Shown one piece after another: positions 1 to 60,278 of a stretch of 64,000 nucleotides of DNA. The notes beneath the pieces were generated by a model that made no database searches, was not told where the DNA came from, and saw only the letters and a list, made by a program, of their open reading frames with translations. The stretch comes from Salinicola avicenniae (GTDB taxonomy: Bacteria; Pseudomonadota; Gammaproteobacteria; Pseudomonadales; Halomonadaceae), in NCBI RefSeq assembly GCF_023736115.1, contig NZ_JAKQZC010000002.1:1-64000 (forward strand), read 5' to 3'. The first letter of the stretch is position 1. The number at the start of each line of letters is the position of its first letter. A program made the position numbers and the translations under genes.

Positions 1-115
1 GGCCGTCGACCAGCAGCGCCAGGTCGACCTTGTCGCCGGTGGTGCCGCTGGACTTCGAGGCCTGGGTGATGGCGGCAAGCTGATCTTCGTAGATCATCTT
101 GGAGTCGTGCAGCAG
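1..115 (-). repeat. Direct repeat copy A, inside cysN
   Basis: These 115 bases are identical base for base to 63885-63999 and lie in the same orientation. The first difference is at 116 (c) versus 64000 (g), a synonymous change in an arginine codon. The repeat is the GTPase region of two cysN-type genes. The left limit cannot be seen because the window starts here, so the real repeat may be much longer. Confidence 0.97.
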
Positions 116-244
116 CCGTCCGATCAGGGTCGACTTGCCGTCGTCGACGCTGCCGCAGGTGATGAAGCGCAGGAGATCCTTGCTCTCGTGCTCCTTGAGG
201 TACTGCTCGATATTGTCGGCGATCAATGAAGACTGATGGGACAT
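1..244 (-). CDS. cysN: Sulfate adenylyltransferase subunit 1 CysN, 5' end only (runs off the window)
   Basis: This is the GTPase subunit of ATP sulfurylase, which with CysD turns sulfate and ATP into APS. Only the first 81 residues are visible. They contain the P-loop GSVDDGKST at about residues 31-39, typical of CysN/NodQ translation-factor-like GTPases. The start ATG reads down from 244. It lies downstream of cysD on the same strand with an unusually long gap (about 186 bases); a small inverted repeat (ATTCGGC / GCCGAAT, 346-364) sits in that gap without a T-tract. Whether this copy also carries a C-terminal APS kinase (CysC) domain cannot be seen. Its first 115 visible bases are identical to the second cysN-type gene at the other end of the window. 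Confidence 0.93.
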
Positions 245-430
245 GATCGTATCTCCCGGGGTCATTGGGATGCACGAAGCCGCGACGGTCTCGCGAGAGG
301 CGTCGGCACGGGCATCCGGAAATCATGAAAGGTCAGGACAAGGGAATTCGGCATATCGCCGAATCGAAGGCCTGTTATCGGCGTGGCGCGGACCGGAACA
401 TTGGGGTTCTCGGCCCGCCGCAGCGCGGGT

Positions 431-1381
431 TCAGAAGTAGCCTTCGCGCTTCTTCTTCTCCATCGAGCCGGCCTGATCCTTGTCGATGGCACGACCGCTG
501 CGCTCCGAGGTGCGGGTCAGCAGCATCTCCTGGATGATCTCCGGCAGCGTCGCCGCTTCCGACTCCACCGCACCGGTCAGCGGATAGCAGCCCAGCGTAC
601 GGAAGCGCACCCACTTCTCTTCCGGCACTTCGCCCGGTTCCAGCGGCAGGCGCTCGTCGTCGACCATCACCAGCATGCCGTCGCGCTCGACCACCGGACG
701 CGGGGCGGAGTAGTAGAGCGGCACGATGGGGATCGATTCGAGGTAGATGTACTGCCAGATATCCAGCTCGGTCCAGTTGGAGAGCGGGAAGACACGGATC
801 GACTCGCCCTTGTTAACCTTGCCGTTGTAGAGATTCCACAGCTCCGGGCGCTGGTTCTTGGGGTCCCAGCGGTGGTGCTTGTCGCGGAAGGAGTAGACGC
901 GCTCCTTGGCGCGGGAGGCTTCCTCGTCGCGGCGCGCCCCGCCGAAGGCGGCATCGAAGCCGTACTTGTCCAGCGCCTGCTTGAGCGACTGGGTCTTCAT
1001 GATGTCGGTGTACTTGGCGCTGCCGTGATCGAACGGGTTGATGCCGGCGGCACGCCCTTCCTCGTTGATATGCTCGATCAGCTCCATGCCCACGTCCGCC
1101 GCCATGCGGTCGCGGAACTCGATCATCTCCTTGAACTTCCAGGTGGTGTTGACGTGCATCAGCGGGAACGGCGGCGACCCGGGATAGAAGGCCTTGCGCG
1201 CCAGATGCAGCATCACCGAGGAGTCCTTGCCGATCGAGTAGAGCATCACCGGGTTGCCGAACTCGGCCGCCACTTCGCGGATGATGTGAATCGACTCGGC
1301 TTCGAGCTGCTTCAAGTGGGTCTGGCGTTCGGGACTCAGCGCCACGTCAGGACTCGGTTGATTGGTGTTCGGTACGGTCAT
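431..1381 (-). CDS. cysD: Sulfate adenylyltransferase subunit 2 CysD
   Basis: This is the catalytic subunit of ATP sulfurylase (sulfate + ATP to APS + PPi), which works with CysN in the cytoplasm. The PP-loop motif SIGKDSS lies at about residues 49-55, and the C-terminal stretch with [15 protein letters not shown] is characteristic of CysD. It is 316 residues, close to the family size of about 300. I chose the ATG at 1381 because GGGGTG stands 9 bases before it; a longer reading from a GTG at 1393 has no ribosome site. It follows cysQ by 54 bases and precedes cysN. Its place behind capsule-export genes suggests that it feeds polysaccharide sulfation, although a role in cysteine synthesis is not excluded. 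Confidence 0.97.
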
Positions 1382-1435
1382 GGTCAATTGCACCCCATGT
1401 TGTATCTATCCAGATTGACGAAAAAACCGGTCTGA

Positions 1436-2266
<831 letters not shown>

Positions 2267-2300
2267 TGGGTCGTCCCTTTTGTGTGGATCACCTTGACCG

Positions 2301-3641
2301 TCATGCCCTCATGGGCAGCATGACGATCCCCATCTTCTTCCATACGAAAAACGCTGCCACCACGTTCTGCAGCACCAGCACCAGCATCAGCGACAACGCC
2401 GCCCCCGTGGCACCGAATACGGGGATCAGCACGAAGAAGGATGCCGTGCCCAGCGTGCTGCAAATCAGGGTGATATTGCGCATCAGCTTCTCGCGTCCGG
2501 TCATCGTCAGCAGGAAACCGACGGCTCCGGTCATCACGTTGATCAGCTGTCCCACCGCAATGATACGCAGCAGATCGGCTGCCTGGCGAAATTCGTCACC
2601 GAACCAGCCGAGTACCCACTCCGGGAAGACGAAGCAGACGGCCGCCGGCGGCAGCGCCAGCACCGTCGCCGCCAGGGAGCTGCGCTGGGCTAGCTGCTTG
2701 AGCTGCGGGTGCTTGCCCTGATGAAACAGACGCGCGAAGCGCGGCGGAAAGACCGCATTGATCACCAACAGGATGAAGCTGATGACCATGGCCACACGCT
2801 CGGCTGACTTGAAGAGTCCCAGGTCGCCATGTGTCAGCAACGCGCCGGCAATCAGCACCCCCAGTACCTGCTGCAGAAACTGAGAGAGATTGAGCACGAT
2901 GAAACTGTGGGCGGTCGCGAAGTATTCGCCGCGCGTCGGCAGCTCACCATCCGGTTTGCCGTTCATCACCTCAGGGTGCCGGCGCAACCACCACCCGCTC
3001 TGCAGCGCCCCCTGAAGGCCGACCAACCAGGCCGCCAGACAGAAACCCCAGCCGGCCAGCACCAGCGAACGCGAACCGGTCGCCAGCACCATCGCCAGAA
3101 TGCAGCCCGCAGCCAGCAGCGAAATGGCGCCGTTCTCCTGCAGGCTGGCTCGCGCCGGCATGCCAATTCCCTTGAGAAAGCCGGCGAGGACAAAAGAGAG
3201 TGTGAAAGCGGGCACGGCCACCGCAATACCGACCAGCACTGGCGCGAGATCCGGCGAATCGAAGAAGCGCGCCAGCGGCATCCGGCATAGCCCGATGAGC
3301 AAGGCCACGGCCAGGCTCAAGCCACCGGCGCGGTAGAGCGACCAGCGCAGATAGACCGGAATGTTGGGGCTGGCGGCATCCTGGCTGACATAGCGCATCA
3401 GCGTGCCGTTCAGCCCGAAGCGCGCAATGATGCCCGCGCCGAGGATAACGCTCTGCGCCAGGGCAAAGACGCCGACACCCGCCGCACCGTAGAGCCGACC
3501 GAGCACGATGCCCAGCATCAAGGTGCCCAGCGCGGCAATACCCCGCGCCACGAAGGTCCGGCAGAGAGAGAGAAACAACTCGCCGCGAAATCGGGCCAGC
3601 CACTGACGCGGCATGCCGCCGAGGCGCTGTGTCTGATTCAT
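2301..3641 (-). CDS. Wzx-type polysaccharide flippase (MOP superfamily)
   Basis: This is a 446-residue integral membrane protein with about 12-14 hydrophobic segments. The N-terminal pattern FVARGIAALGTLMLGIVLGR is typical of polysaccharide / O-antigen flippases of the MOP superfamily. Such proteins move undecaprenyl-linked repeat units across the inner membrane. The gene sits 15 bases after the SLC13 permease gene and 34 before cysQ, in the operon that begins with wza. It is the only flippase candidate in the window, so it is the likely partner of the Wzy-like polymerase at 42.7-44.0 kb. No substrate can be read from the sequence. Confidence 0.85.
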   Translation of the reverse strand: MNQTQRLGGMPRQWLARFRGELFLSLCRTFVARGIAALGTLMLGIVLGRLYGAAGVGVFALAQSVILGAGIIARFGLNGTLMRYVSQDAASPNIPVYLRWSLYRAGGLSLAVALLIGLCRMPLARFFDSPDLAPVLVGIAVAVPAFTLSFVLAGFLKGIGMPARASLQENGAISLLAAGCILAMVLATGSRSLVLAGWGFCLAAWLVGLQGALQSGWWLRRHPEVMNGKPDGELPTRGEYFATAHSFIVLNLSQFLQQVLGVLIAGALLTHGDLGLFKSAERVAMVISFILLVINAVFPPRFARLFHQGKHPQLKQLAQRSSLAATVLALPPAAVCFVFPEWVLGWFGDEFRQAADLLRIIAVGQLINVMTGAVGFLLTMTGREKLMRNITLICSTLGTASFFVLIPVFGATGAALSLMLVLVLQNVVAAFFVWKKMGIVMLPMRA

Positions 3642-3656
3642 GGCAGGATCCGCAGG

Positions 3657-5417
3657 TCAGAAAGGCCAGACAAAAGGAATACCGATGAGCGTTACCGCCG
3701 CGACCGTCAGGCTCAGCGGCAATCCCCATTGGAGGTAATCGGTAAAGCGGTAGCCGCCGGGGCCCTGCACCATCAGATTGGTCTGATACCCGAGCGGCGT
3801 CAGGAAGCTGGCGGATGCCGCGAACATCACCGCGATGGCGAACGGCATCAGTGACACGCCCAGCGATGTCGCCACCGCCTGAGCGATGGGGAACATCAGC
3901 ACCGCCGCCGCGTTGTTGGTAATCAGCTCGGTGAAGAGCGTGGTCAACAGATAGATCGCCAACAACATCACCCAGGGGCTATCGAGCCCCAGCGTCAACA
4001 AGGCCTGGGCGATCCCCTGGGCCGCACCGGTGACTTCCAGCGCCTTGCCCAGGGAGAACGACGAGGCGATCACGATCAGGACGCTGAAATCGACCGAGCG
4101 TCGTGCCTGCGTCGCCGTCAGGCAACGCGTGAGAATCATCAGACCGGCGACCAGAAAGCCCGCCTGCAGAATCGACAGCCAGCCGAGCGCCGAGCTTGCC
4201 ACCAGCAGCAGCAATAGCCCCATCGCCAGCGGCGCCTTGCGGTGATCGGGCGGATTGGAGTCGGTCAGCGCGCTGACCAGCAGGAAATCGCGGTTGTTAC
4301 GGTGCACGTTGGCAAAGCTGCGACCCCCTTCGACCAGCAGCGTATCGCCAGGCTGCAGCTTGACGTCGCCAAGCTTGCCCTGCATACGCTGGCCGTGACG
4401 CGAAATCGACAGGATGGCGGCGTGGTAACGGGTCCGGAACTGCACCGCCTTGACCGTCTGTCCGATGCCGGGAAACTCCGGTGACAGCACCACTTCGGTC
4501 AAGCTGCGGTGGATATGTGCCATGGGCAGCGAATCGACGTCACTATTGGCCGGCTTGAGGCCATTGCGCGCGCGCAGCTCCTGAGCACACTCCGGCGAGC
4601 CGACGAAGAACAGGCGATCGCCGGCCTTGAGCACGGTATCCGGACTGACCGCGCTGAACAGCTCGCCGTCACGCTCCAGTTCAGCCAGATAGCCGTGCGC
4701 CAGGCGACGCAGGCCCGCCTCGGCGATCGGCTTGCCGACCACCGGGCCGCGCGCCTCGACAACGCACTCGACGCCATACTCACGCATCTTGGCCAGTTGA
4801 CCGCGGGCACCCTGGCGATCCGGCATGCGCCCGCCCATCAGGAACAGCACCACGCCACCGGCAAGCGCCACCATCACCCCCAGCGGCGTGATATCGAAGA
4901 TCCCCAGGCCCTGCCCGCTCTGTTGCAGCAAGCCGTTGACGACCAGGTTGGTGCTGGTACCGATCAGCGTCATGGTACCGCCGAGAATCGCCACGTAGCT
5001 CAACGGCAACAGCAGACGCGAGGGCGACATCTGCAGACGCCGGCACCATTCCTGAACCGCCGGGATGAGCATCGCCACCACGGTGGTGTTGTTCATGAAC
5101 GCACTGAGCACCGCCGTCGGCACCATCATTCGCAGCTGCGCTACGCGCTCGCTGTCGGGCAGGCCAAGCACTCGTTGCACGATCCAGTGCACCGCGCCGG
5201 TCTCCTTGAGTCCGGCGGCCACCACGAACAGCACCGCGATGGTGATGACACCGCTGTTGCCGAAGCCGGCCAGTGCCGCCGCCGGCGACAGGATGCCGCT
5301 GATGATCAGCAGCGCCATTGCTCCCACCAGAATCGCGTCGGTGGGAAACCGGTTGGTGGCCAGCGCCAACAGCACACAGACCACCAACCCTAGGGAAAAA
5401 TAGGCTTCAAGAGACAT
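3657..5417 (-). CDS. SLC13 / DASS-family permease with two TrkA-C domains, probable sulfate transporter
   Basis: This 586-residue membrane protein has an ion-transporter (CitT/ArsB-like) fold. N-terminal helices carry the motif NNTTVVAMLIPAV near 110, and an STNLVVNG motif near 160 matches the Na+/substrate hairpin signature. Two soluble RCK_C (TrkA-C) domains sit at roughly 205-300 and 300-380, and the C-terminal helices include a second hairpin (TNNAAAVLMFPIA). SLC13 proteins with central TrkA-C domains are often sulfate transporters. Standing between wzc and cysQ-cysD-cysN, sulfate is the best guess for substrate. The start has no strong ribosome site. It follows wzc by 73 bases with no obvious terminator, so co-transcription is plausible. 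Confidence 0.85.
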   Translation of the reverse strand: MSLEAYFSLGLVVCVLLALATNRFPTDAILVGAMALLIISGILSPAAALAGFGNSGVITIAVLFVVAAGLKETGAVHWIVQRVLGLPDSERVAQLRMMVPTAVLSAFMNNTTVVAMLIPAVQEWCRRLQMSPSRLLLPLSYVAILGGTMTLIGTSTNLVVNGLLQQSGQGLGIFDITPLGVMVALAGGVVLFLMGGRMPDRQGARGQLAKMREYGVECVVEARGPVVGKPIAEAGLRRLAHGYLAELERDGELFSAVSPDTVLKAGDRLFFVGSPECAQELRARNGLKPANSDVDSLPMAHIHRSLTEVVLSPEFPGIGQTVKAVQFRTRYHAAILSISRHGQRMQGKLGDVKLQPGDTLLVEGGRSFANVHRNNRDFLLVSALTDSNPPDHRKAPLAMGLLLLLVASSALGWLSILQAGFLVAGLMILTRCLTATQARRSVDFSVLIVIASSFSLGKALEVTGAAQGIAQALLTLGLDSPWVMLLAIYLLTTLFTELITNNAAAVLMFPIAQAVATSLGVSLMPFAIAVMFAASASFLTPLGYQTNLMVQGPGGYRFTDYLQWGLPLSLTVAAVTLIGIPFVWPF

Positions 5418-5490
5418 GCATTCAGCGCCGAAAGAGTTCCAGATCGTGACCGCGTGACCTGCCGGTCGCTAGCTTGCGCCAATCATCCTG

Positions 5491-7695
5491 TCACTTGTAG
5501 CTGTAATGATAATAACCATACCCGTACTCGGTGGCCGCCTTGCGCTCCACCGCGTTCAGGATCGCACCGCGCGGCTCCACGCCCGCCGTGCGCAGTCGGC
5601 CGAGCGCCAGCTCGAGCTCCTTCGCCGGATTGAGCTGGAAGCGTGCCAGCATCAGCGTCGTACCGACCTGCTCCCCAACCACCGCAGCATCGGTCACCGC
5701 CAGAACGGGCGGAGAATCGATGATCACCAGGTCATAGCGCTCGCTGACCGCGCGCAAGAATTCACTGAAACGCGCCCCCATCAGCAACTCAGAGGGGTTC
5801 GGCGGTGCCATGCCGCGGGCGACATATTGCAGGTTCTCGACGTCGGCAACGTCGCGCACGACTTCCTCCAACGAGAGCTTGCCGCCAAGCAGATCGCTCA
5901 GCCCCTGACCGGACGCGGCACCGAAAACGCTGTGAACCTGCCCCTTGCGCATATCGGCATCGACCACCAGGACACGCTGACCAGCTTGGGCGCAGACCGC
6001 TGCCAGATTGACGCTGACGAAGCTCTTGCCGACGCCGGGGCTCGGACCGGTAATCATCAACCGGTTGTCATTCGCTTCGAGCATGGCGAAGTGCAGGCTG
6101 GTACGCAGACCACGCAACGCCTCGATCGACACATCGGCCGGATTCCGCATCGCCAGCAGCCCGGCAGGCACGCTGCGCTCCTGCTCACGGCGGGAACGCT
6201 TGATGCGCCGGTCAAGCTTGCCCTGCTCCTCGGAAAGCGGAATCGTCGCGTAGACCGGCAGGCCAAGCTCCTCGATCTGCTCCTGGGTCTCGATACCGCG
6301 ATTGAACAGCGCCCGCAGGAAGACTCCCGCCACCCCGACGATCAACCCGAGGATGATCGAAACTGCCAGAATCAGTACCTTGTTGGGCGCGACCGGCGCC
6401 GGCAACGCCGCCGCGCTATCGAGGATACGGACGTTGCCGACCGTACTCGCCTCGGCGATCTTGGTCTCCTGCACCTTGTTGAGCAGTTGCACGTAGATTT
6501 CGTTGTTGACCTCGACGTCGCGCTGCAGGCGCAGGATTTCCTGCTGCGTTTCCGGCAGATTCTTCACCTGCTGGTTGAGGTTGTCGCGTTCACGCTGCAG
6601 TTGGGCTTTCTTCTCCAGCAGCGCCTGATAGGTCGGGTGCGACTTGGTAAATCGCTGAGAGATCTCGGCCTCGCTCATCTCCAGCTCGTTGAGCTGAGAC
6701 TCCAGGTTGACCACGCGATCGAGCACCGACTGCGTCTCCATCGACAGGTCGACGCTATCGCGAGATTCACGGTACTGGTTGAGCTTGTCTTCGGCCTGGT
6801 TGAGCTGCTCGCGAATCTCCGGCACCTGGCTGTTGAGGAACTCCAGGCTCTTGCGCGCCTCCTCGGACTGGCGCTGCACGTTCTGCGAGTAGTAGATGTC
6901 GGCGATGGTATTCAGCGCCCTCTGCGTCTCATCCGGGTCGGTGCCGGTCAGGCTCCAGCTCAGGATACCGGTTTCGCTGCCGGCCTCGACGACCTCGAAG
7001 CGTCCCCGCAGACCATTGATCGCGGCCAGCTCCGGCGTGCGCTGCACCGTGAAGCGAGCGCCGGGTGCGGCATCGATCGCGGTCACTCGTAGCGACAGGT
7101 CACCGCCAAGGAAGGTACTCATCTGCCCCACCTTGCCGCTACCGACTTCAGTGCCATCGGCATCCAACAGCCGGTAGCTATAGCTGTCTTCCACCTCGAG
7201 GGTAAATGTCTTGCCGCGATAGGCATCCGCCATCGGCATGTCGCTGACGACCACGCTCTCTCCGCCGAAGGCGTAGCCCCATCCTTGGGCGAAGTCGGGC
7301 CGACCGATGCCGTGACTGCGCAGGAAGCCACCGATCACCGGCAACGTGACCGGCGTCACGTTGATATCGAGATTGAGCAGATCCACCGCCTGACCCAACA
7401 CCATCCGCGACCGAATGATCTCGATTTCCGACAGCGTCGGCGGCTTCTCTCCCAGTAACGAGGAGACCTCGCGCAGCGGGTTGTCAGGCGCATTCGACTC
7501 GATCTGAACGAGCGCGTCGGCCCGGTAGATGGGCGTCGCCAGACTCACGTAGACCAGCCCAATGAGGGCAAAGACCGCCACGCTGGCCAGGACCCACTTG
7601 CGATAGTCCAGCAGGATGCCGAGCAGTCGTCGAATGTCGATCTCTTCGTGATTACTGCGCGCCGTGGGCGTCATCGATGTATTGCTCGTGTTCAT
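5491..7695 (-). CDS. wzc: Wzc-type polysaccharide co-polymerase / BY-kinase
   Basis: This inner-membrane protein sets polysaccharide chain length and works with Wza in export; its cytoplasmic domain is a bacterial tyrosine kinase. At 734 residues it has a Wzz domain, a first membrane segment at about 35-57, a long periplasmic coiled-coil region, a second membrane segment near 440, and then the kinase. The kinase shows Walker A GPSPGVGKS (about 550-558), Walker A' VDADMRKG near 578, Walker B VIIDSPP near 657, and a C-terminal tyrosine cluster EYGYGYYHYSY for autophosphorylation. I chose the ATG at 7695; reading further upstream would run into wzb. It lies 19 bases after wzb. Confidence 0.96.
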   Translation of the reverse strand: MNTSNTSMTPTARSNHEEIDIRRLLGILLDYRKWVLASVAVFALIGLVYVSLATPIYRADALVQIESNAPDNPLREVSSLLGEKPPTLSEIEIIRSRMVLGQAVDLLNLDINVTPVTLPVIGGFLRSHGIGRPDFAQGWGYAFGGESVVVSDMPMADAYRGKTFTLEVEDSYSYRLLDADGTEVGSGKVGQMSTFLGGDLSLRVTAIDAAPGARFTVQRTPELAAINGLRGRFEVVEAGSETGILSWSLTGTDPDETQRALNTIADIYYSQNVQRQSEEARKSLEFLNSQVPEIREQLNQAEDKLNQYRESRDSVDLSMETQSVLDRVVNLESQLNELEMSEAEISQRFTKSHPTYQALLEKKAQLQRERDNLNQQVKNLPETQQEILRLQRDVEVNNEIYVQLLNKVQETKIAEASTVGNVRILDSAAALPAPVAPNKVLILAVSIILGLIVGVAGVFLRALFNRGIETQEQIEELGLPVYATIPLSEEQGKLDRRIKRSRREQERSVPAGLLAMRNPADVSIEALRGLRTSLHFAMLEANDNRLMITGPSPGVGKSFVSVNLAAVCAQAGQRVLVVDADMRKGQVHSVFGAASGQGLSDLLGGKLSLEEVVRDVADVENLQYVARGMAPPNPSELLMGARFSEFLRAVSERYDLVIIDSPPVLAVTDAAVVGEQVGTTLMLARFQLNPAKELELALGRLRTAGVEPRGAILNAVERKAATEYGYGYYHYSYK

Positions 7696-7714
7696 GGGGG
7701 ACTCTTGCATCCTT

Positions 7715-8152
7715 TCAGCGGTCCGGCATCTTGCCGATCCAGGCGTCCGCGGCCTGCACCAGCAACTGATGAACGTGTTCGAAGGCACTCTCGCTCTTGC
7801 GGTAGGGGTCCGGCACTTCTCGTGGCTCGATCCAGCGCGCAAACAGCATCGTCTTGCCGGAAGCCGCCGGGTGGCGCTCGGCCACGGCATGGCGCTGCCC
7901 CTCGCTCATGACCAGCACCAGGTCCGCCGCCTGCAACATGGAATCATCGACCTGCCGGGCGACATGGGCGGAGAGATCGAGGCCATGCGCCTCGGCCAGC
8001 GCGCGGGCCGTTGGCTCGACGCCTTCCCCGACCAGGGCGCCCAGGCCGGCGGAAGCGATCTGTCGTTCGGGAAAGCGAGCGCGCAACAGGGCCTCGGCCA
8101 CCGGGCTACGACAGATATTGCCGGTACACAGCACCAATATGCGGTCAAACAT
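7715..8152 (-). CDS. wzb: Wzb-type low-molecular-weight protein tyrosine phosphatase
   Basis: This phosphatase removes phosphate from the Wzc tyrosine tail and so cycles capsule assembly. It is 145 residues, with the catalytic loop CTGNICRS at residues 9-16 and the general-acid motif DPY at 115-117, both complete. The start ATG at 8152 comes one base after the wza stop, which indicates translational coupling; an upstream in-frame start would overlap wza. Its order between wza and wzc is the usual one. Confidence 0.95.
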   Translation of the reverse strand: MFDRILVLCTGNICRSPVAEALLRARFPERQIASAGLGALVGEGVEPTARALAEAHGLDLSAHVARQVDDSMLQAADLVLVMSEGQRHAVAERHPAASGKTMLFARWIEPREVPDPYRKSESAFEHVHQLLVQAADAWIGKMPDR

Positions 8153-8153
8153 C

Positions 8154-9317
8154 TCAGTTGCCGTCCCGCAGCTCATCGAAGTCACGCGTGGCTCGCGTCA
8201 CCTGGTAGATCGAGGTAATCGTCGGCGTCAGCTGGTTGACCACGCGATTCCAGCGGCTCAACGGCGCAGCGGTCACATAGACGATATCGGTGGGCTGCAG
8301 CATGAACTGGGTGCCCAGTACCAGTGCCGTGGCATTGCGCGCGTCCAGCTGGTAGACCGTCGCCAGCTTGCCGCTGTCGGGCGCTGCCTGCCGGATCACG
8401 AAGATGCCGTTGGCGTCGGCCTGCGCCTCGTCCATGCCACCCGCCTGCGAGAGGGCGTCGGTCAGCGACAGACGGGTGTTGCCCATCGGCAGCGTCGCCG
8501 GGTCGACGACCTCGCCCATCACGAACACCTTCTGGTTGCCCAGATCCGGCACATGCAGCACGTCGCCATCCTGCAGCAGTCGATTCTGCTCGAGATCACC
8601 GTTCTGCAGCATGTCATGGACGTCGATGTGCGTTTCTTCGTCGCCACGCGTCAGGACCACATCATGCCAGTTGGCCTCGCCATTCAGCCCCCCGGCCAGA
8701 TTGACGGCGTCCAATACGGTCATCGGCACATTGGTCACCGGCATCACACCGGGCTGCTCGACCTGCCCCGTCACGTAGACCTTCTGTGAGTTGTAGCCGG
8801 CCACCTTGACGTCAACCTGAGGTTCGGTGATGTAGGTCGCCAGACTGCGCTGCAGCTGATCTCGCACGTCCTCGACCGTACGCCCAGCCACCTGGATACG
8901 TCCGACATAGGGATAGAAGATGGAGCCGTCACTATAGACGGTATTGCCCGACTCCTCCGTTGGGCGCTCGCTGCCCGCCGGAATGGTCAGCTCAGGATGG
9001 TCATAGACAATGATCGAGAGCACATCCCCCACACCGATGCGGTACTGATAGCGCGCGTCGAGAGCGTCATGTTGCGGACCCGACAGCGCTCTGGCGAGCG
9101 CGGCATCGTCACCTGTGCCACCTGCCGCCTCCTCTGTCGGCGCCATCTGTTGACTGCGCACCAGCCCCAAGGTGATCGGCTCGACGTCCACGAGGTCGTC
9201 GATCGGCGCCGAATCCGTCTCATAGCCGATATTGCCGCCGGGCGCGAAGGCACAACCGGAGAGAACCACGCCAAGTGACATGCATAGCCAGATGGCACGC
9301 CATCTATCAAGAGTCAT
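8154..9317 (-). CDS. wza: Wza-type outer-membrane polysaccharide export lipoprotein
   Basis: Wza forms the outer-membrane channel for capsule or exopolysaccharide. The protein is 387 residues, with a lipoprotein signal ending LSGC (Cys22). The Poly_export domain starts around residue 90 (YRIGVGDVLSIIVYDH) and is followed by SLBB domains (KVYVTGQVEQPG and KVFVMGEVVDPA). I prefer the ATG at 9317, since AGGG stands 6 bases before it; the ATG at 9323 leaves almost no spacing. It heads a same-strand run wza-wzb-wzc-permease-flippase-cysQ-cysD-cysN. An ops / JUMPstart element lies about 100 bases upstream. Confidence 0.96.
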   Translation of the reverse strand: MTLDRWRAIWLCMSLGVVLSGCAFAPGGNIGYETDSAPIDDLVDVEPITLGLVRSQQMAPTEEAAGGTGDDAALARALSGPQHDALDARYQYRIGVGDVLSIIVYDHPELTIPAGSERPTEESGNTVYSDGSIFYPYVGRIQVAGRTVEDVRDQLQRSLATYITEPQVDVKVAGYNSQKVYVTGQVEQPGVMPVTNVPMTVLDAVNLAGGLNGEANWHDVVLTRGDEETHIDVHDMLQNGDLEQNRLLQDGDVLHVPDLGNQKVFVMGEVVDPATLPMGNTRLSLTDALSQAGGMDEAQADANGIFVIRQAAPDSGKLATVYQLDARNATALVLGTQFMLQPTDIVYVTAAPLSRWNRVVNQLTPTITSIYQVTRATRDFDELRDGN

Positions 9318-9419
9318 CTTCATCCCTGCCGTTCACCCTGTTTTTCGTCCATGAGGAGCCCCACTACTCAACCATTCTCGACCTTGATTATCGAGCCAGC
9401 TCAATAAATAAATTTTAAA

Positions 9420-9433
9420 CACGCTACCGCCCC
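9420..9433 (-). promoter_or_regulatory. ops / JUMPstart element in the wza leader (RfaH recruitment site)
   Basis: On the minus strand this reads GGGGCGGTAGCGTG, which includes the full ops consensus GGCGGTAGNNT and equals the last 14 bases of the enterobacterial JUMPstart sequence. A GTTAA stands a few bases upstream, as in JUMPstart. In enterobacteria this site pauses RNA polymerase and recruits the antiterminator RfaH to long capsule, LPS and toxin operons. It is about 103 bases before the wza start, in the right orientation, ahead of an operon of about 9 kb. Confidence 0.85.
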
Positions 9434-11178: not shown

Positions 11179-11313
11179 TCATCGCCCCGACAATGCCGAT
11201 AGCGTTGCGGGCAGTTGCCCGCGAGGGCTCGCGGCAACGCTCGTGGTAGCCGGTGACAGAACGGATGACGGGACAGGGATTTCCGTGAACTCAGGCAAGG
11301 ATGTGATCGACAC

Positions 11314-12138: not shown

Positions 12139-12147
12139 GTCAAGCTC

Positions 12148-42684: not shown

Positions 42685-44034
42685 TCAAGACTCACCCTGC
42701 CCGTGGTCGACCAACTCTGCGTCGGGTGACGCTATCTCGGTGCCTTTGACATGCGGGCGAAATAGATAAAATGACAACGCGCAGCCACCCACAATAGTCA
42801 CGAAATAGATTCCCGTTCGGAAGATAAAATAGGATTCCGTCAGATTGGCGATGGCAAAAAAGACAAACGAACACGCCAATCCGGTTGCCAGATATCGATG
42901 GCCCCGCTTATAGGCCTGACGGACACCTTCCCACATGGCTCCGCATAAGATGCCCAATATGGTCAGGCCGATCAGTCCATAGGCCAAGGTGATTTCGATA
43001 TAGGAGTTGTGGAAATGCCCGAAACGATCACGAATGGCTTGCGGGAACGGGCCTTCGTCGATGAGATATTTTCGACTATCGGCTCCCCAACCGGTCAAAG
43101 GGCGTTCGGCAATTTTTTCGAGCGCATAGCGCCAAGTATGGAGACGGATACCAATGCTAGAATAAGGGATACTATCCCAATCCAGCTCAGCCGCCGTTTG
43201 CATTACGCTAGCCTCCTTGTCCAATCGCTTCTCGATCAAACGATCAAACTGCGTTGCGCCAAATGCCAGAAACGCCATGACAATAGCGACCATTACAAAC
43301 AGTGTTCGAGGCTTTGTGGCTTTCCCATGATGAACACGAAATAACCGATAACAGAGATAAGGAGCGATCAGCACAAAGACAACGGCAAGCGCCAACCACA
43401 CGCCCCGCGTTTGAGTTACAATAACGCCAACCAAGGCGACTAGAGACAGAAGCACGCTCAAGCTCAGTTGCCACGCCCGCCCATGGGATGACACTAAATG
43501 CCCTAGCCAGGTCAGCGCGGCGATCAAAGCCCAGCCAAAATAGACCGAGGTATGTTGGGCATTGTGGTAATCAAAATCGACACGCTTCCCCTGAACACCC
43601 GCCCACCAACTTTGCCAATCTCCTTGCCAGATAAGCGACACCCAAAACCCCGCCAGTGTCGCTATCAAAATCGTTAACGCTCGTGAAGAACTCCCTTTGA
43701 CCCACCAGGCAATCATCAAGCATAGAAAAAGCTTCGTATAATGACGCTCGCTTGTAATGGAGTCATCAGCCGGAAAGCGCGCGACTGAAAACTGATGCAC
43801 AGATATCTGCAGAACGACAAAGGCGACTAACAGCAGGAAAATCCAACTATATTTCGTCGCCCTATCACTCTCCCCTACCCAAGAAAATAGAAAGGACAAC
43901 AGTAGGAGAATTTCTGCAGACCTTGAAATTTCCAGATTTACCAGCCAGAAAAAAGCGTAAGCTACAGCCAGCACACCCATCAATATATCAACACGCCGCA
44001 TCCGGGCTAGAGAAAAACCGATCGATTTTTTCAC
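42685..44034 (-). CDS. O-antigen ligase / Wzy-type polysaccharide polymerase
   Basis: This 449-residue inner-membrane protein has about 11 hydrophobic segments and a large periplasmic loop (about 265-335). The loop carries IGIRLHTWRYALEKIAERPLTGWG and FGHFHNSYIEITLAYG, which match the Wzy_C (O-antigen ligase) domain. It would join flipped repeat units into chains. I chose GTG at 44034, which overlaps the stop of the sugar-transferase gene (GTGA); a GTG at 44097 would overlap much more and has no ribosome site, and ATG at 44001 is possible. Low GC content. Confidence 0.83.
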   Translation of the reverse strand: MKKSIGFSLARMRRVDILMGVLAVAYAFFWLVNLEISRSAEILLLLSFLFSWVGESDRATKYSWIFLLLVAFVVLQISVHQFSVARFPADDSITSERHYTKLFLCLMIAWWVKGSSSRALTILIATLAGFWVSLIWQGDWQSWWAGVQGKRVDFDYHNAQHTSVYFGWALIAALTWLGHLVSSHGRAWQLSLSVLLSLVALVGVIVTQTRGVWLALAVVFVLIAPYLCYRLFRVHHGKATKPRTLFVMVAIVMAFLAFGATQFDRLIEKRLDKEASVMQTAAELDWDSIPYSSIGIRLHTWRYALEKIAERPLTGWGADSRKYLIDEGPFPQAIRDRFGHFHNSYIEITLAYGLIGLTILGILCGAMWEGVRQAYKRGHRYLATGLACSFVFFAIANLTESYFIFRTGIYFVTIVGGCALSFYLFRPHVKGTEIASPDAELVDHGQGES

Positions 44035-45302
44035 CGTGAACCAAACCCTGTCAGCATTGTCTTGAATGTTTTTAAAAAAATCAAAAGATCTAGCCACAAT
44101 GAAAAATGCTTGATGTAATAAAAATCGTACTGTAGCTTCGCGCGCATTCCATCGACCTCAGCAGCATAGCCTTGATTAACTTGCGCCCAGCCTGAAATTC
44201 CCGGCCTCACTACATGGCGATAACTGAAGAAAGGCACATCCCGTTCGTACCAAATCGACAACCGTGTTGTCTCTGGCCTAGGGCCTATGAAACTCATCTC
44301 CCCCTTTAAAACATTAATAATTTGCGGCAACTCATCGAAACGATACTTTCTTAGCCACTTACCAATACGCGTAATACGGGGATCATTCCCATGCGTAAAT
44401 TCGGCACCTTTTTCGCCACATCTCATTGTTCGAAACTTGTACATTCTAAAAGGCCGCGCACGATACCCCATTCGTTGTTGAACAAAAAAAACGGGGCCCA
44501 TATCTTCTTTTTTAATAAAGAAAGCCACACCCACTAACAGCGGAAGAAGAAGGGGAAGAAACAACACTGCCCCAACAATATCGAGAGATCTTTTAACAGC
44601 AGCATAGAAAGACGAGGGAAGCAATGTGCCAAATTCATTTTCTGCCAGATGTTCTATCTGCACCCTACCCGTTATCGACTCTTCAATTTGCTTAACATTA
44701 TAGACTGGGATATGAAACAACGTGCATTTTGCAATGAACTTCTCCCACTCTGGCGTCATATCCTTTGCGTAGAAATCAGCCACCACGCCATCAAATCTCA
44801 CGCTTTCTAAATTAGGCTCTGTCAAGAATCGCAGTTCCACTTGCCGCCCCCCTCTCATCATGAGAGCTTGCCCCAAAGGCACGACAGCCAGCTTTTGTGA
44901 ACGGTACCTTCTCCCCACAAGATACCCAAGGAAAAACCATCCCAGGCATAGCACATAGCCGTAAAAAAGGACTTGTCGTGTATAACCTTCTCGAGTAAAG
45001 AAAAGTGCCGCCACAACTATTAGATAAGCGATGGACACCGCCGGCAAAATGAATGACACGACTTGGACACCAGGGTAGCGCATAATGCGCCTAAGCGTAA
45101 AAACGATGGCCGTGAAGGAAAGGATAATAGCCAAAAGCGTATTACCGCGCACATCTGGCATGTACTCCCAGAACTGCCACCCCCATCGTAGGACTGCAGG
45201 AGTCAGCGCTACAATCGGCAAGCCCACCAGAAACTGTAGGGGGAGACCAAATAACAAGCGCTCATACCATCTGGAATGGCGACGTTCGTATTTAGCTTCC
45301 AT
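44031..45302 (-). CDS. Initiating polyprenyl phosphoglycosyltransferase (WcaJ/WbaP class)
   Basis: This membrane enzyme transfers the first sugar-phosphate to undecaprenyl phosphate. It is 423 residues: four membrane helices in the first 140, a soluble middle domain, then the catalytic bacterial sugar transferase domain from about 225. That domain has KRSLDIVGAVLFLPLLLPLL, YKFRTMRC, KYRFDELPQIINVLKGEMSF and IGPRPE. Its start overlaps the upstream glycosyltransferase by 11 bases; AAGG stands 9 bases before the ATG. It is the only such enzyme in the window, so it most likely starts the repeat unit. Donor unknown. Confidence 0.93.
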   Translation of the reverse strand: MEAKYERRHSRWYERLLFGLPLQFLVGLPIVALTPAVLRWGWQFWEYMPDVRGNTLLAIILSFTAIVFTLRRIMRYPGVQVVSFILPAVSIAYLIVVAALFFTREGYTRQVLFYGYVLCLGWFFLGYLVGRRYRSQKLAVVPLGQALMMRGGRQVELRFLTEPNLESVRFDGVVADFYAKDMTPEWEKFIAKCTLFHIPVYNVKQIEESITGRVQIEHLAENEFGTLLPSSFYAAVKRSLDIVGAVLFLPLLLPLLVGVAFFIKKEDMGPVFFVQQRMGYRARPFRMYKFRTMRCGEKGAEFTHGNDPRITRIGKWLRKYRFDELPQIINVLKGEMSFIGPRPETTRLSIWYERDVPFFSYRHVVRPGISGWAQVNQGYAAEVDGMRAKLQYDFYYIKHFSLWLDLLIFLKTFKTMLTGFGSR

Positions 45303-46503
45303 GCTTCAATACCTTCAAGATATCCGATGCCATTCTTTCCATGATTTTGTCACGCCGCCATTTTTCGACAAACTCTTCCCTGGGAGTATGGACGAGTTTC
45401 AAGCGATAAAGTGCATCCACTGCATCCTTCGCATCGCCAGCATTAAACAGTGCAAGATTTTCAATCTTTTCATTAGCGAATGTAGCAGAATATCCATGCA
45501 ATCCGGCAAGTATTGGCTTCCCGGTAGCCGCGTACTCAAACAGTTTTGAGGGTAACACCGTATCGAGGGAAGGCAACGTATTGAGATGTAAAAACAAGAC
45601 ATCTGCCTGTTGGTATGCAACCAAAAGCTCTTCGCGAGGGACTGGGTAACGTAGCTCCACATTAGTAATACCTTTATCCCTAATAGCATGCGCAAGGTTT
45701 TCTCGACCTGCCCCATCACCTAGGACCAGAAATGTCGCACGCTCCCTCAAGAGAATGGCTAATTGAGGCAATATATGCTCTATCCCCTGTCCGGCCCCGA
45801 GATTGCCTGCATACACCACCTTTAAGGAAGTACCGCATCGCCGCCGACCTTCTTTAGCAAAAACACCGGTTTCGAATGCCTCGATGAAAGGTGCGTCGAT
45901 TCCATTGGTATACCAGGAGAAGGATTGCTCGGGATAGCGCGAGCGGAAGTAGGGTTCGAAGCCACCAGAAACCAAATTTATTCGATCTGCTTTTGCCAGG
46001 GACCATCTCTCCATAATGGAAAATAACGCAGCAAGTGGATATCCAACTCCGAATGGCATTATCGAGGGTAGGTTATCGACAAAGTTGTCTCGAATATCCA
46101 GATAAAGCCGCGCTCCACTACGCATCGCCACCCAACGAGCCAAAACGGCAGTCATCAAGCGCGAGGAAGTGGCAATTACTAAGTCGTAGTGTCGATCGCG
46201 CGTCAACCGACGGACCTGAGCAGCATAAGACGCGAAAGCTCTTGCCTGGGAAACCATGCCCCGTCCATCGCTAGACACGTCGAACCTGTGAATCCGTACT
46301 TTCTTATCACCCGACACATCATCATTCACAGCACCTTCCATGCGGTTACCGAAACGATTGGGCGCCGTCGTGAGCACCTCGAGCTCGCTGTCAGTGGAAA
46401 GTTGATTCGATAACGCCTTCACTAGTGCTTCGCAACGAAAGGCGCCGGCGCTGATATCGGGAGGATAGTAGAAGCCGAGCACCAAGATCCGGACCACCAT
46501 CAT
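45292..46503 (-). CDS. GT4-type glycosyltransferase
   Basis: This 403-residue GT-B-fold enzyme has an N-terminal VLGFYYPPDISAGAFRCEAL that resembles WbuB-like fucosyl/aminosugar transferases. The C-terminal half has VVYAGNLGAGQGIEHILPQL, a GDGAGRENL nucleotide loop, and PSKLFEYAATGKPILAGL with the retaining-type Glu. It adds one sugar of the repeat unit at the cytoplasmic side of the membrane. It overlaps the neighbouring genes on both sides. Confidence 0.9.
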   Translation of the reverse strand: MMVVRILVLGFYYPPDISAGAFRCEALVKALSNQLSTDSELEVLTTAPNRFGNRMEGAVNDDVSGDKKVRIHRFDVSSDGRGMVSQARAFASYAAQVRRLTRDRHYDLVIATSSRLMTAVLARWVAMRSGARLYLDIRDNFVDNLPSIMPFGVGYPLAALFSIMERWSLAKADRINLVSGGFEPYFRSRYPEQSFSWYTNGIDAPFIEAFETGVFAKEGRRRCGTSLKVVYAGNLGAGQGIEHILPQLAILLRERATFLVLGDGAGRENLAHAIRDKGITNVELRYPVPREELLVAYQQADVLFLHLNTLPSLDTVLPSKLFEYAATGKPILAGLHGYSATFANEKIENLALFNAGDAKDAVDALYRLKLVHTPREEFVEKWRRDKIMERMASDILKVLKHGS

Positions 46504-47750
46504 CGCGTCGCCATACCCGCGCCAGACTCTGGCAAGATGCGGGCATAGAGCTCGGTCAACTCCTGCTCCTGAGCTTCCCAGTTGAGTGACCTAGCAGCTT
46601 TTGTCGCCTGTTCACGATAGTAACCGCGCTGCTCAGGATCCTCGACCAGGCTCTGGATGGCGCCGGCCAATGCCTGTGTATCCCCCGGAGCTACCAGCAC
46701 GCCGAGATCATTCTCTCGAACGACCTTGCTGATCTCCGGCAACCGGCTCGCCACCACCGGAAGACCCGCAATCACATACTCGAACAACTTATTGGAGTCG
46801 GTCGTGAAATGGTTAAGGCAGGTGTTCTCGATAGGCTGGACGCCGATATCGGCCGATGCCGTGTAGGACAGCAGCTCGCTCAGCGCCACCGTAGGGATGA
46901 AGCGAACCCGTTCGCCCAGATCCAACTTCTCGACGAGTTCGTGTAGCTCTGCTGCTTGGCGCCCTCCTCCTAGGAAAACGAAATAGGCATGCTGTACGCT
47001 TGCGGCAGCTTCCACCAACCTTGGCAACCCCCTGCCCGGCTGCAACCCACCCTGGTACAGCACGATAGGCCAAGACTCGGCTAACCCAAGTTCCTCACGA
47101 ATACGGTTCGAGCCTTGGGTCTCGACGAGACGCGGACGATTCTGCAGTACCACCGGGCGTGGAATGCGATAAGCCCGTGAAAAAAACTTCGCACGAGCAT
47201 CGGTGGTGGTGATGGTGCCCGCGGCCCTAGGCATGAGTTTCTTTTCAATCCAGCCCACTAGCCCGCGAAAGGCCTGGTAGCCTTCTCGATCCGTGCTGAT
47301 TTCGTGGGCATCATAGACGAGTGGCACTCGGGACAGTCTGGCAGCCAGCCACGCCGTCGGAAGTACATTCACGTCATGAGCGTGAATCACCGCAGGACGA
47401 GAACGGACCAGTTGGTAAGTCAGCTCAATATGCGCCCAGGTTCGCGCAAAGATGCTAAGCAATTGCCCAACTAGGCGTCTCCTCGAGCCAGCCCCATTGG
47501 CCACCGCTAGTTCTGCTGTCTCAGCCGCATCCGGGTAGGCCCGCCACTTGCGAAATCTCCAGAGCGGACTGCGCGCCACACGCACAACCTTGACGCCTGA
47601 CTCTAGCGTTTCTCTCTGTAACGTCTTTCCCGGAGCATGCAGCGCATGAACGACAACCTGATGACCTGCTGTCTGGAGAGTCTGAGCTTCCTTCAGGACA
47701 CGAGCGTCGTTAAGAAAGTCGTTCCATACAATCATGGAAATAGTAGACAA
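46500..47750 (-). CDS. GT4-type glycosyltransferase
   Basis: This 416-residue GT-B enzyme has VWNDFLNDARVLKEAQTLQT at the N-terminus. HAHDVNVLPTAWLAARLSRV and DAHEI follow, then VLYQGGLQPGRGLPRLVEA and NKLFEYVIAGLPVVASRLPE, the donor-binding region with the conserved Glu. The DNA is more GC-rich than the genes upstream. It overlaps the next glycosyltransferase by four bases. Sugar specificity cannot be read. Confidence 0.9.
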   Translation of the reverse strand: MSTISMIVWNDFLNDARVLKEAQTLQTAGHQVVVHALHAPGKTLQRETLESGVKVVRVARSPLWRFRKWRAYPDAAETAELAVANGAGSRRRLVGQLLSIFARTWAHIELTYQLVRSRPAVIHAHDVNVLPTAWLAARLSRVPLVYDAHEISTDREGYQAFRGLVGWIEKKLMPRAAGTITTTDARAKFFSRAYRIPRPVVLQNRPRLVETQGSNRIREELGLAESWPIVLYQGGLQPGRGLPRLVEAAASVQHAYFVFLGGGRQAAELHELVEKLDLGERVRFIPTVALSELLSYTASADIGVQPIENTCLNHFTTDSNKLFEYVIAGLPVVASRLPEISKVVRENDLGVLVAPGDTQALAGAIQSLVEDPEQRGYYREQATKAARSLNWEAQEQELTELYARILPESGAGMATR

Positions 47751-57804: not shown

Positions 57805-57833
57805 TACAACCCTGCCCAATTATGATTTATATG

Positions 57834-59117
57834 TCAGACGGACCAAATACCACGGCTGTCGATAAGGTAGCCCTCATCAAGCGATTGCGGTTCGATGTTC
57901 TTGAACTGCTTGTGATCTACTAGCAGAACGATGACATCAGCACTTTCAATCGCATACGCGGTGGTAACCAGTCTGCATCCATTTAGTTTATCAGCAGGCA
58001 GCGCGTCTATATTAGGTTCAACAATCAGCGTCTGGCCCGGGTTGGAAGCCGCGATTTTCTGCGTAATGGCAAGTGCCGGACTTTCACGCAGGTCGTCGAT
58101 ATCCGGCTTGAAAGCCAGACCGAAACAGGCGATGGAAACTTCTTTTGCGGTTTTATCGGAGTTGGCCGACAAGAACTTGCCTACTGCCTCGCTTACCTTG
58201 TCGACCACCCACTGTGGCTTGCCATCGTTCACTTCGCGCGCCGTACGAATCAGCCGAGCCTCGTCTGGCGTCTCGCTGACGATGAACCACGGGTCGACGG
58301 CGATGCAGTGGCCGCCAACCCCGGGGCCAGGCTGCAGAATATTGACACGAGGGTGGCGATTCGCGAGGCGGATCAGCTCCCAGACGTTGATATCCAGCTT
58401 ATCGCAGATAATAGAAAGCTCATTGGCGAAGGCGATGTTCACGTCACGAAAGCTGTTTTCGGTGAGCTTGGCCATCTCTGCAGTGCGCGCCGTGGTGGTG
58501 ATGCACTCACCTTCCACGAATATCTTGTAGAGATCTGTTGCCGCTAGGGAACACTTGGCGGTCATGCCCCCTATTACACGGTCGTTTTCCACCAGCTCAC
58601 GAATCACGTGGCCCGGCAATACACGCTCGGGGCAATGGGCAACGCGAATGTCCGAATCCTCGCCGTGTGTCTGCGGGAAAGTCAGGTCTGGCCGCGCCTC
58701 GGCCAGCCAACCAGCCATGCTTTCTGTCGCGCCCACCGGCGAGGTCGATTCCAGAATGACCAAGTCACCTTTTTTGAGTACGGGCGCGATAGATTGACTG
58801 GCGGCCCGAATATAGGTCAGGTCCGGTTCGTGACTGCTATGTTCGGGGTTGGTCTTGAATGGGGTCGGCACAGCAATCAGAAAAGCATCTGCCGGTTCGG
58901 GTGTCGTCGTTGCCTTGAGATAATCTTGCTTAACGGCAGCATGAACGATCATGTCGAGTTCGGGCTCGACGATGTGAATCTCGCCTTTGTTGATTGTATT
59001 AACGGCCTGTTCGTTCACATCGACGCCAATGACTTTTTTCCGGCGAGAAGCGATAACAGCTGCCGTGGGCAAGCCGATGTAGCCGAGACCAACAACTGAA
59101 ATAGTATCAAATTCCAC
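57834..59117 (-). CDS. wecC: UDP-N-acetyl-D-mannosamine dehydrogenase WecC
   Basis: This enzyme oxidises UDP-ManNAc to UDP-ManNAcA, a uronic amino sugar donor. It is 427 residues: an NAD-binding VVGLGYIGLPTAAVIASRRK, ESTSPVGATE, and the catalytic Cys in QPGPGVGGHCIAVDPWF (near 262). I chose the GTG at 59117, which has AGGAG 8 bases before; a TTG at 59135 is less likely. It follows wecB by 36 bases. Confidence 0.95.
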   Translation of the reverse strand: MEFDTISVVGLGYIGLPTAAVIASRRKKVIGVDVNEQAVNTINKGEIHIVEPELDMIVHAAVKQDYLKATTTPEPADAFLIAVPTPFKTNPEHSSHEPDLTYIRAASQSIAPVLKKGDLVILESTSPVGATESMAGWLAEARPDLTFPQTHGEDSDIRVAHCPERVLPGHVIRELVENDRVIGGMTAKCSLAATDLYKIFVEGECITTTARTAEMAKLTENSFRDVNIAFANELSIICDKLDINVWELIRLANRHPRVNILQPGPGVGGHCIAVDPWFIVSETPDEARLIRTAREVNDGKPQWVVDKVSEAVGKFLSANSDKTAKEVSIACFGLAFKPDIDDLRESPALAITQKIAASNPGQTLIVEPNIDALPADKLNGCRLVTTAYAIESADVIVLLVDHKQFKNIEPQSLDEGYLIDSRGIWSV

Positions 59118-59153
59118 TGGAACAACTCCTAGCAATAATTTAAAGATAGATAC

Positions 59154-60278
59154 TCAACGCTGGGCAAGAATGTCACGAATTCGCTGGCAGGATTTGCCAT
59201 CACCATACGGGTTATGGGCATAGCTCATCGCTTCATACGCATCCTGATCGGTCAGCAGGCTCTGAAGTTCGCCGACGATGGTATCTACATCGGTACCCAC
59301 GAGCTTGACCGTGCCAGCCTGTACCGCTTCGGGACGTTCAGTGGTCTCGCGCATCACCAGCACTGGTTTGCCAAGAGAAGGGGCTTCTTCTTGAATACCG
59401 CCAGAATCCGTCAGGATGATATCGGCCTGGTTCATCAGATACACAAAAGGCAGATAATCCAATGGCTCGATCAGATGTACGTTATCGACGTCGCTTAAGA
59501 ACTTTTTCACCGGTGTTCTGACATTTGGATTCAGATGGACTGGATAAACGATCTGCGTATCAGGATTACTGACCGCCGTATCATGCAGCGCCTTGCAAAT
59601 CCGTTCGAACCCACCACCAAAACTTTCGCGTCGGTGCCCAGTTACCAGTATCAGCTTCTTGTCCCGCTGCAAGAAATCGAACTGTTGTGAGAAACGTTGT
59701 TGATACGCCGGTTCCGTCTCGAGTTTGCGCACGACATCCAGCAAGGCGTCGATGACGGTATTGCCGGTAACATGCACCTTAGCTGTCGGCACTCCCTCTT
59801 CGAGCAAGTTCTGCCGCGAACGCTCGGTCGGCGCAAAGTGAAGCTCGGCCAGGGCGCCAGTCAACTTGCGGTTGGCCTCTTCCGGCCAGGGTGAATAAAT
59901 GTTGCCGGTTCTAAGCCCTGCTTCCACATGCGCCACGGGAATCTGCTGGTAATAGGCAGCCAACGTTGTCGCCAAGGTCGTCGCCGTATCCCCGTGGACC
60001 AGTACGATGTCCGGCTTAACCTCGGCCAAAACGGTTTTCATACCTTGCAGGATTGCCGTTGTGACATCAGTAAGGTCCTGACCGGGTTTCATGATGTTGA
60101 GGTCGTGGTCGGGAACGAGAGAAAACAGATCCAGTACCTGGTCAAGCATTTCGCGGTGCTGTCCGGTAACGCAAACCTTGGCGTCAAAACGTTGATCACA
60201 GGCCAGCGAGAGCGCGAGTGGCGCCATTTTGATGGCCTCCGGGCGAGTACCAAATACGCATAGTGTCTTAATGGTCAT
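59154..60278 (-). CDS. wecB: UDP-N-acetylglucosamine 2-epimerase WecB
   Basis: This non-hydrolysing epimerase turns UDP-GlcNAc into UDP-ManNAc for WecC. It is 374 residues: [17 protein letters not shown] at the N-terminus, [34 protein letters not shown], and [20 protein letters not shown] in the C-terminal domain, all complete. AAGGG stands just before the ATG. It is the first of the wecB-wecC pair. Confidence 0.97.

What the first reader, a model, noticed from the sequence alone, without database searches (positions are those of the whole stretch)
1..9433. One operon joins capsule export with sulfate uptake and sulfate activation
Reading leftward, wza, wzb, wzc, an SLC13 sulfate-type permease, a Wzx flippase, cysQ, cysD and cysN follow in one orientation with mostly short gaps. 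Sulfate import, APS synthesis, PAP removal, repeat-unit flipping and export would be switched on together. This points to a dedicated pathway for a sulfated surface polysaccharide. Such pathways are hardly described in bacteria outside Nod factors, some cyanobacteria and a few others. The gene order is seen; the sulfation role is inferred.
Basis: partly seen in the sequence, partly recalled or inferred. Interest (0 to 1): 0.9.

Follow-up and report, generated by a model that had tools for sequence, protein, structure and literature searches.

The report
Sulfated exopolysaccharide operon of Salinicola
A salt-loving bacterium carries one long gene set that appears to build, sulfate and export a surface sugar polymer, and sister species carry the same set with the whole sulfation kit missing, which would let the role of bacterial polysaccharide sulfation be tested directly.

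Summary
The gene order is real. Window base 1 is a contig end that cuts cysN; relatives place the genome in Salinicola. The rest of cysN most likely lies at the start of contig C7, followed by a PF03567 sulfotransferase, a second probable one, a Wzy-like protein, two glycosyltransferases, kdsA/C/D-like genes, cysC and an initiating sugar transferase. Three relatives carry wza to this transferase on one contig; the rival partner ends are joined as housekeeping cysDN in two relatives. So PAPS synthesis, PAP removal and sulfotransferase share one Wzx/Wzy-type operon. An ops element precedes wza in 9 of 9 leaders held. Of 13 genus genomes with this backbone, 8 carry the sulfation set, at two separated sites, and 5 carry none of it; phylogeny leaves two independent contrasts. 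The in-operon SLC13 permease is optional (2 of 18). The window's other end holds a second sulfation-type cluster with a fold-supported sulfotransferase. PAPS genes plus sulfotransferase in capsule loci are already published (Cobetia, Vibrio): a new variant of a known kind. A sulfated product is inferred; no chemistry was done.

The parts
9421..9431 (-). JUMPstart/ops-like element GGCGGTAGCGT in the leader of wza (motif recalled)
   Evidence: Only exact GGCGGTAGNNT in the window, 0.37 expected; GGCGGTAG upstream of wza in 9 of 9 leaders held
8154..9323 (-). wza, outer-membrane polysaccharide export lipoprotein
   Evidence: PF02563, PF18412, PRK15078 over cut-off
7715..8185 (-). wzb, low-molecular-weight tyrosine phosphatase
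   Evidence: PF01451 115 bits
5491..7710 (-). wzc, co-polymerase / tyrosine autokinase (listed ORF runs to 7890; start 7710 is my choice from the relatives' match)
   Evidence: PF02706, PF13807, TIGR01007
3657..5417 (-). SLC13/CitMHS permease with two TrkA_C stretches, probable sulfate importer, lineage-specific
   Evidence: PF03600, PF02080; at over 60% identity in 2 of 18 genus genomes; 26 of the 30 best-matching SLC13 loci have a cys gene within 1.5 kb
2301..3641 (-). wzx, MOP-family flippase
   Evidence: PF01943, PF13440, PF01554
1436..2266 (-). [quoted passage not shown]
   Evidence: TIGR01331 over cut-off
431..1393 (-). cysD, ATP sulfurylase small subunit
   Evidence: TIGR02039 over cut-off
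1..265 (-). cysN, 5' end; cut by the contig end. Likely continuation at C7:3-923, then ST1, ST2, wzy-like, GTs, kdsA-, kdsC-, kdsD-like, cysC, sugar transferase (C7:954-11129)
   Evidence: join inferred from synteny
62215..64000 (-). second cluster: cysNC with APS kinase domain (gene runs to 64176; a second SLC13 permease at C4:64226-65992 and an ops-like element at C4:66020-66030 lie upstream)
   Evidence: PF01583 225 bits
60336..62192 (-). second cluster: glmS-type aminotransferase (named from its sequence by eye)
   Evidence: translation; not scanned against a library
57834..60278 (-). second cluster: UDP-GlcNAc 2-epimerase (wecB) and UDP-sugar dehydrogenase (wecC-like)
   Evidence: PF02350, PF03721
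52293..57819 (-). second cluster: two large glycosyltransferase-type proteins (one with methyltransferase and coiled-coil parts)
   Evidence: PF13524, PF13692, PF13649
50635..52272 (-). second cluster: heparinase II/III-like protein
   Evidence: PF16889, PF07940
49670..50572 (-). second cluster: sulfotransferase without a Pfam or NCBIfam match
42685..47750 (-). second cluster: two glycosyltransferases, initiating sugar transferase, Wzy-type protein
   Evidence: PF13692, PF00534, PF02397, PF04932
39667..42603 (-). second cluster edge: ugd-like UDP-sugar dehydrogenase and mannose-1-P guanylyltransferase/isomerase
   Evidence: PF03721, PF00483, PF01050

Best explanation
This is the first half of one long (about 21 kb, 18-gene) ops-type operon for a sulfated, probably Kdo-containing, Wzx/Wzy-dependent exopolysaccharide or capsule of Salinicola. 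Proposed steps: SLC13 imports sulfate; CysD/CysN make APS; CysC (encoded near the operon's far end) makes PAPS; one or two sulfotransferases move sulfate onto the lipid-linked repeat unit or growing glycan; CysQ clears PAP; Wzx flips the unit, the Wzy-like protein polymerises it, Wzc/Wzb set chain length and Wza exports it. Shown here: gene identities, order, synteny, ops motif, all-or-none presence of the sulfation genes in the genomes held. Inferred: the contig join, transcription as one unit, sulfate specificity of the permease, the sugars, the acceptor, and sulfate in the product.
For: Gene identities. The cysN 3' piece on C7 is followed by a PF03567 sulfotransferase (69.8 bits, cut-off 22) and, further on, cysC. 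G116 (S. rhizosphaerae), G134 (S. tamaricis) and G095 carry wza to the sugar transferase on one contig, with cysQ-cysD-cysN-ST between wzx and wzy and cysC between kdsD and wbaP. The competing ends (C5-right, C4-right) are contiguous as nudF-cpdA-cysD-cysN-cysE-pgi in G095 and G077. Of 13 backbone genomes, 8 have ST homologues and in-operon cysC, 5 have neither. GGCGGTAG in 9 of 9 wza leaders held. A separate housekeeping cysDN exists, so this set is not needed for assimilation alone.
Against: No chemistry or RNA data. The join between contigs is inferred. Only 3 of the 8 sulfation-form operons are on one contig; G000 itself and G112, G003, G043 and G131 are cut in or near cysN/cysD. S. tamaricis has wzc, wzx and wbaP matches in broken pieces. 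In S. rhizosphaerae about 550 nt separate cysD from cysN, long for a tight operon. The all-or-none pattern rests on two independent contrasts on the parC tree (sign test p 0.5). The Wzy-like protein is under the Pfam cut-off (20.1 of 31.7 bits). RfaH itself was not searched for.
Confidence: 0.85

Rival explanations
1. The cys genes serve ordinary sulfate assimilation and sit beside the export genes by accident.
For: CysD/CysN are also assimilatory enzymes; the operon cysD copy is 97% identical in DNA to the housekeeping copy.
Against: A cysN next to cysE and a cysD next to cpdA, joined in relatives as housekeeping cysDN, exist apart from the operon. The operon set adds CysC, CysQ and sulfotransferases, and the set is absent as a whole from 5 sister operons.
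Confidence: 0.06
2. The sulfate goes to another acceptor (a glycolipid, LPS or small molecule) and the polysaccharide is unsulfated.
For: Bacterial sulfotransferases act on many acceptors (general knowledge); the acceptor of ST1 cannot be read from sequence (one search found no solved relative by sequence).
Against: The genes sit inside the wzx-wzy interval. Published capsule loci with PAPS and sulfotransferase genes yielded sulfated polymers (PMC11766843, PMC11641403).
Confidence: 0.07
3. The contig ends join the other way, so the wza-cysN block and the sulfotransferase block are two separate loci.
For: Both 5' pieces of cysN end alike and both 3' pieces begin alike, so sequence at the ends cannot decide.
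Against: Synteny in three relatives for one join and in two for the other.
Confidence: 0.04
4. The SLC13 permease moves another anion (a dicarboxylate, for example) and has no part in sulfation.
For: The general DASS model is under its cut-off (107 of 198.6 bits); two complete sulfation-form operons (G095, S. tamaricis) lack the gene, and only 2 of 18 genus genomes have a copy over 60% identical.
Against: 26 of the 30 best-matching SLC13 loci have cysQ, cysD or cysN within 1.5 kb (no other permease was counted as a control); the Cobetia capsule locus also has a sulfate permease gene in the operon with cysQ (PMC11766843).
Confidence: 0.25

Closest known systems
Cobetia marina KMM 1449 sulfated capsule locus (PMC11766843)
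   Same: A related genus (Halomonadaceae, recalled); cysNC, cysD, cysQ, sulfate permease and sulfotransferase within a capsule locus; sulfate shown in the polymer by chemistry and NMR
   Different: ABC-transporter (kpsDMTE) export, rhamnose/mannose polymer, PAPS genes in their own operon; here a Wzx/Wzy-type row with kds-like genes and split cysN and cysC
Vibrio sp. KMM 8419 sulfated capsule locus (PMC11641403)
   Same: Second copies of cysC, cysN, cysD plus sulfotransferases in a capsule locus, with JUMPstart elements; sulfated polymer shown
   Different: ABC-transporter export; the word permease does not occur in the main text; cysQ was not looked up in this paper on its own
Synechan xss cluster of Synechocystis 6803 (PMC8205485)
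   Same: Wzx/Wzy-type cluster with two sulfotransferases and sulfated product
   Different: Cyanobacterial; the words PAPS and phosphoadenosine do not occur in the main text, and the gene list read names no PAPS genes
Mauran eps genes of Halomonas maura (Arco et al. 2005, seen only as cited in PMC8588121)
   Same: epsA, epsB, epsC and the wzx homologue epsJ, needed for an exopolysaccharide reported as sulfated
   Different: No sulfation genes named in the passage read; sequences not compared here

Membership tests
Wzx/Wzy-dependent polysaccharide operon | Wza, Wzc and Wzb export/regulation set | tested here: met
Wzx/Wzy-dependent polysaccharide operon | Wzx flippase | tested here: met
   PF01943, PF13440 over cut-off
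Wzx/Wzy-dependent polysaccharide operon | Wzy polymerase | tested here: inconclusive
   C7 ORF matches PF04932 at 20.1 bits, cut-off 31.7; no NCBIfam match
Wzx/Wzy-dependent polysaccharide operon | Polyprenyl-phosphate sugar transferase | tested here: met
   PF02397 227 bits on C7
Sulfated-polysaccharide gene cluster (hallmark named in PMC11641403) | PAPS synthesis genes in the cluster | tested here: met
   cysD, cysN in window; cysC on C7 in the inferred operon
Sulfated-polysaccharide gene cluster (hallmark named in PMC11641403) | Sulfotransferase gene in the cluster | tested here: met
   PF03567 on C7; contiguous in three relatives
Sulfated-polysaccharide gene cluster (hallmark named in PMC11641403) | Sulfate ester in the polymer | not testable with these tools
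   needs chemistry
Cobetia-type ABC capsule locus | kpsM/kpsT ABC exporter with the sulfation genes | tested here: not met
   The genes scanned in this operon include Wzx and no ABC genes; a separate ABC locus with cysD-cysNC lies at C7:424-432 kb
SLC13/DASS sulfate transporter | CitMHS/SLC13-type membrane family | tested here: met
   PF03600 254 bits; the DASS subfamily model TIGR00785 is under its cut-off
SLC13/DASS sulfate transporter | Sulfate as substrate | not testable with these tools
   neighbourhood only
RfaH/ops-controlled operon | ops element in the leader | tested here: met
   9 of 9 leaders held
RfaH/ops-controlled operon | RfaH protein in the genome and its action | not tested

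The most novel reading that the evidence does not exclude
Sulfation in Salinicola is a plug-in kit: cysQ-cysD-cysN-sulfotransferase at one site and cysC at a second site of an otherwise conserved Kdo-type exopolysaccharide operon, gained or lost as a whole, so that sister species make the sulfated and the plain version of one polymer.
Probability: 0.6. Interest if true: 0.65.

Novelty: new variant of a known kind. Interest (0 to 1): 0.5.

Why it matters
Why bacteria sulfate surface polymers is open, partly because sulfated and unsulfated versions of one backbone are rarely at hand. Five genomes with the plain operon (four from named species, one from a metagenome bin) and eight with the sulfation set (five from named species) offer that comparison. 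A complete PAPS cycle with sulfotransferases and polymer genes in one row is also a useful template for making sulfated polymers.

Tried and rejected

I dropped the idea that sulfate uptake inside the operon is core: the in-operon permease type is present in 2 of 18 genomes.
Full report
WHAT IS THERE. Gaps are short: -32, about 4 (if wzc starts at 7710), 73, 15, 34, 42 and 165 nt. The window is G000:C4:1-64000, so its first base is the end of an assembly contig. The contig stops inside cysN, most likely because the gene occurs several times: the genome has 5' pieces at C4-left and C5-right, 3' pieces at C7-left and C4-right, and two full cysNC genes (C4:62218-64176, C7:428490-430370). The two 5' pieces end with the same letters and the two 3' pieces begin with the same letters.

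WHERE IT CONTINUES. C7-left carries the end of cysN without an APS kinase domain, a Sulfotransfer_2 protein (PF03567, 69.8 bits, cut-off 22), a second probable sulfotransferase, a Wzy-like protein (under its cut-off), a GT4 glycosyltransferase, a Capsule_synth (PF05159) protein, proteins that I name KdsA, KdsC and KdsD from PF00793, HAD, and SIS plus CBS matches, CysC (PF01583) and a PF02397 sugar transferase. In G116, G134 and G095 the genes from wza to this sugar transferase lie on one contig in one direction, with cysD-cysN-ST in the expected place. Two blemishes: G134 has wzc, wzx and wbaP in broken pieces, and G116 has about 550 nt between cysD and cysN. The other two ends, C5-right (nudF, cpdA, cysD) and C4-right (cysE, pgi, parE, parC), are contiguous in G095 and G077 as housekeeping cysDN. 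So C4-left most likely joins C7-left.

TWO FORMS OF ONE OPERON. Of 18 genomes of the genus, 13 hold the backbone protein (PF05159 type) at E <= 1e-60. Eight (G000, G116, G003, G043, G112, G131, G095, G134) have ST1 homologues at E <= 1e-10, the other ten none, and the same eight have a cysC inside the operon. In G003 and G043 two sulfotransferases of 33-40% identity stand in place of ST1. Five (G027, G107, G055, G128, G077; by position S. acroporae, S. lusitanus, S. socius, MAG EAC73, S. halimionae) run wza-wzb-wzc-wzx-wzy-GT-GT-kdsA-kdsC-kdsD-wbaP with no cys or ST match at E <= 1e-6 in about 21 kb. In the three uncut sulfation-form operons 4.2-4.9 kb separate the wzx and wzy matches and 0.7-0.8 kb the kdsD and wbaP matches; in the plain form these spaces are at most 112 and 174 nt. 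The other five of the eight, G000 included, are cut by contig ends in or near cysN/cysD. On a parC tree the sulfation label needs 3 changes among 18 genomes (2 among the 13), and only two independent pairs exist (sign test p 0.5), so the pattern is suggestive, not statistically independent of descent. All 18 genomes have an APS kinase somewhere.

REGULATION. GGCGGTAGCGT, the core of the JUMPstart/ops element as I recall it from enterobacterial polysaccharide operons, lies at 9421-9431 in the wza leader. It is the only exact GGCGGTAGNNT in the window (0.37 expected; 31 of 100 shuffles have one or more), and an exact GGCGGTAG lies 102-305 nt upstream of the wza match in 9 of 9 genomes whose leader I held, 4 with and 5 without the sulfation set. 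RfaH, which acts at ops, prevents early termination in long operons (established knowledge); this would carry transcription into the sulfation genes. I did not look for RfaH itself. No terminator-like site lies in the gaps, but that scan is at chance level.

THE PERMEASE. Apart from G000, the in-operon SLC13 gene is found at 88% identity in G116 only; all other genus matches are at most 60% identical, and G095, G134 and the five plain operons lack it between wzc and wzx. Its subfamily is tied to PAPS genes: 26 of the 30 best-matching loci have a cys gene within 1.5 kb. Of the four misses, one is the G116 operon, whose cysQ lies at the edge of the flank, one is cut by a contig end, and two are plain misses. 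No other permease was counted as a control. It is a likely sulfate importer and an optional extra.

KNOWN OR NEW. The Cobetia marina KMM 1449 paper (abstract, section 2.4 and passages read) reports cysNC, cysD, cysQ and a sulfate permease in an ABC-type capsule locus with a chemically sulfated polymer. [quoted passage not shown] Synechan (passages read) is a Wzx/Wzy-type sulfated polymer with two sulfotransferases in the cluster. Sulfated mauran and a Kdo-containing Cobetia EPS are known (PMC5852497, passages). The epsABCJ work is known to me here only through PMC8588121 (passages). In the held library no paper has both Salinicola and sulfotransferase, and only the Cobetia paper holds wzx, wzy, sulfotransferase and cysQ together; the library lacks most subscription journals. 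The Salinicola operon is therefore a new variant of a known kind: Wzx/Wzy-type export, kds-like genes, split cysN and cysC, and a kit that is present or absent as a whole.

VERDICT. Product chemistry and transcription remain untested.

Noticed in passing
window 39667-64000 and C4:64000-66030: A second, lower-GC polysaccharide cluster (GC 0.39-0.61 at 42-64 kb) headed by SLC13 and cysNC, with a heparinase-like protein and a Pfam-less sulfotransferase; related clusters in G039 and G092.
   Followed up: partly
L011 (C7:424323-431590): A third PAPS gene set, cysD and cysNC (cysNC 52% identical to the C4 copy), beside an ABC-type polysaccharide exporter, resembling the published Cobetia arrangement.
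   Followed up: partly
window 431-1393 and C5:615552-616458: The operon and housekeeping cysD copies are 97% identical in DNA although their surroundings differ, which may reflect gene conversion and would explain the broken assembly.
   Followed up: no
window 10495-14283: Divergent from wza: a small protein without an NCBIfam match, a GfcC-like protein (PF06251, 25.8 bits) and a YjbH protein (PF06082, 773 bits), reminiscent of group 4 capsule-type accessory operons (recalled).
   Followed up: no
L080, L093: In G116 (S. rhizosphaerae) and G101 a separate locus keeps a full SLC13-cysQ-cysD-cysNC cassette; beside the window's second SLC13 only cysNC is found.
   Followed up: partly
window 54439-57819: A 1126-residue chimera of methyltransferase, long coiled coil and glycosyltransferase matches.
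   Followed up: no
L012:9140-10363 (C3:639140-640363): A lone PF13469 sulfotransferase next to a protein that looks OpgG-like to me (not scanned).
   Followed up: no
SLC13 loci L023-L052: 8 of 30 carry GGCGGTAG within 400 nt upstream of the permease (0.16 expected by a rough shuffle), so the permease sometimes heads ops-type operons.
   Followed up: partly
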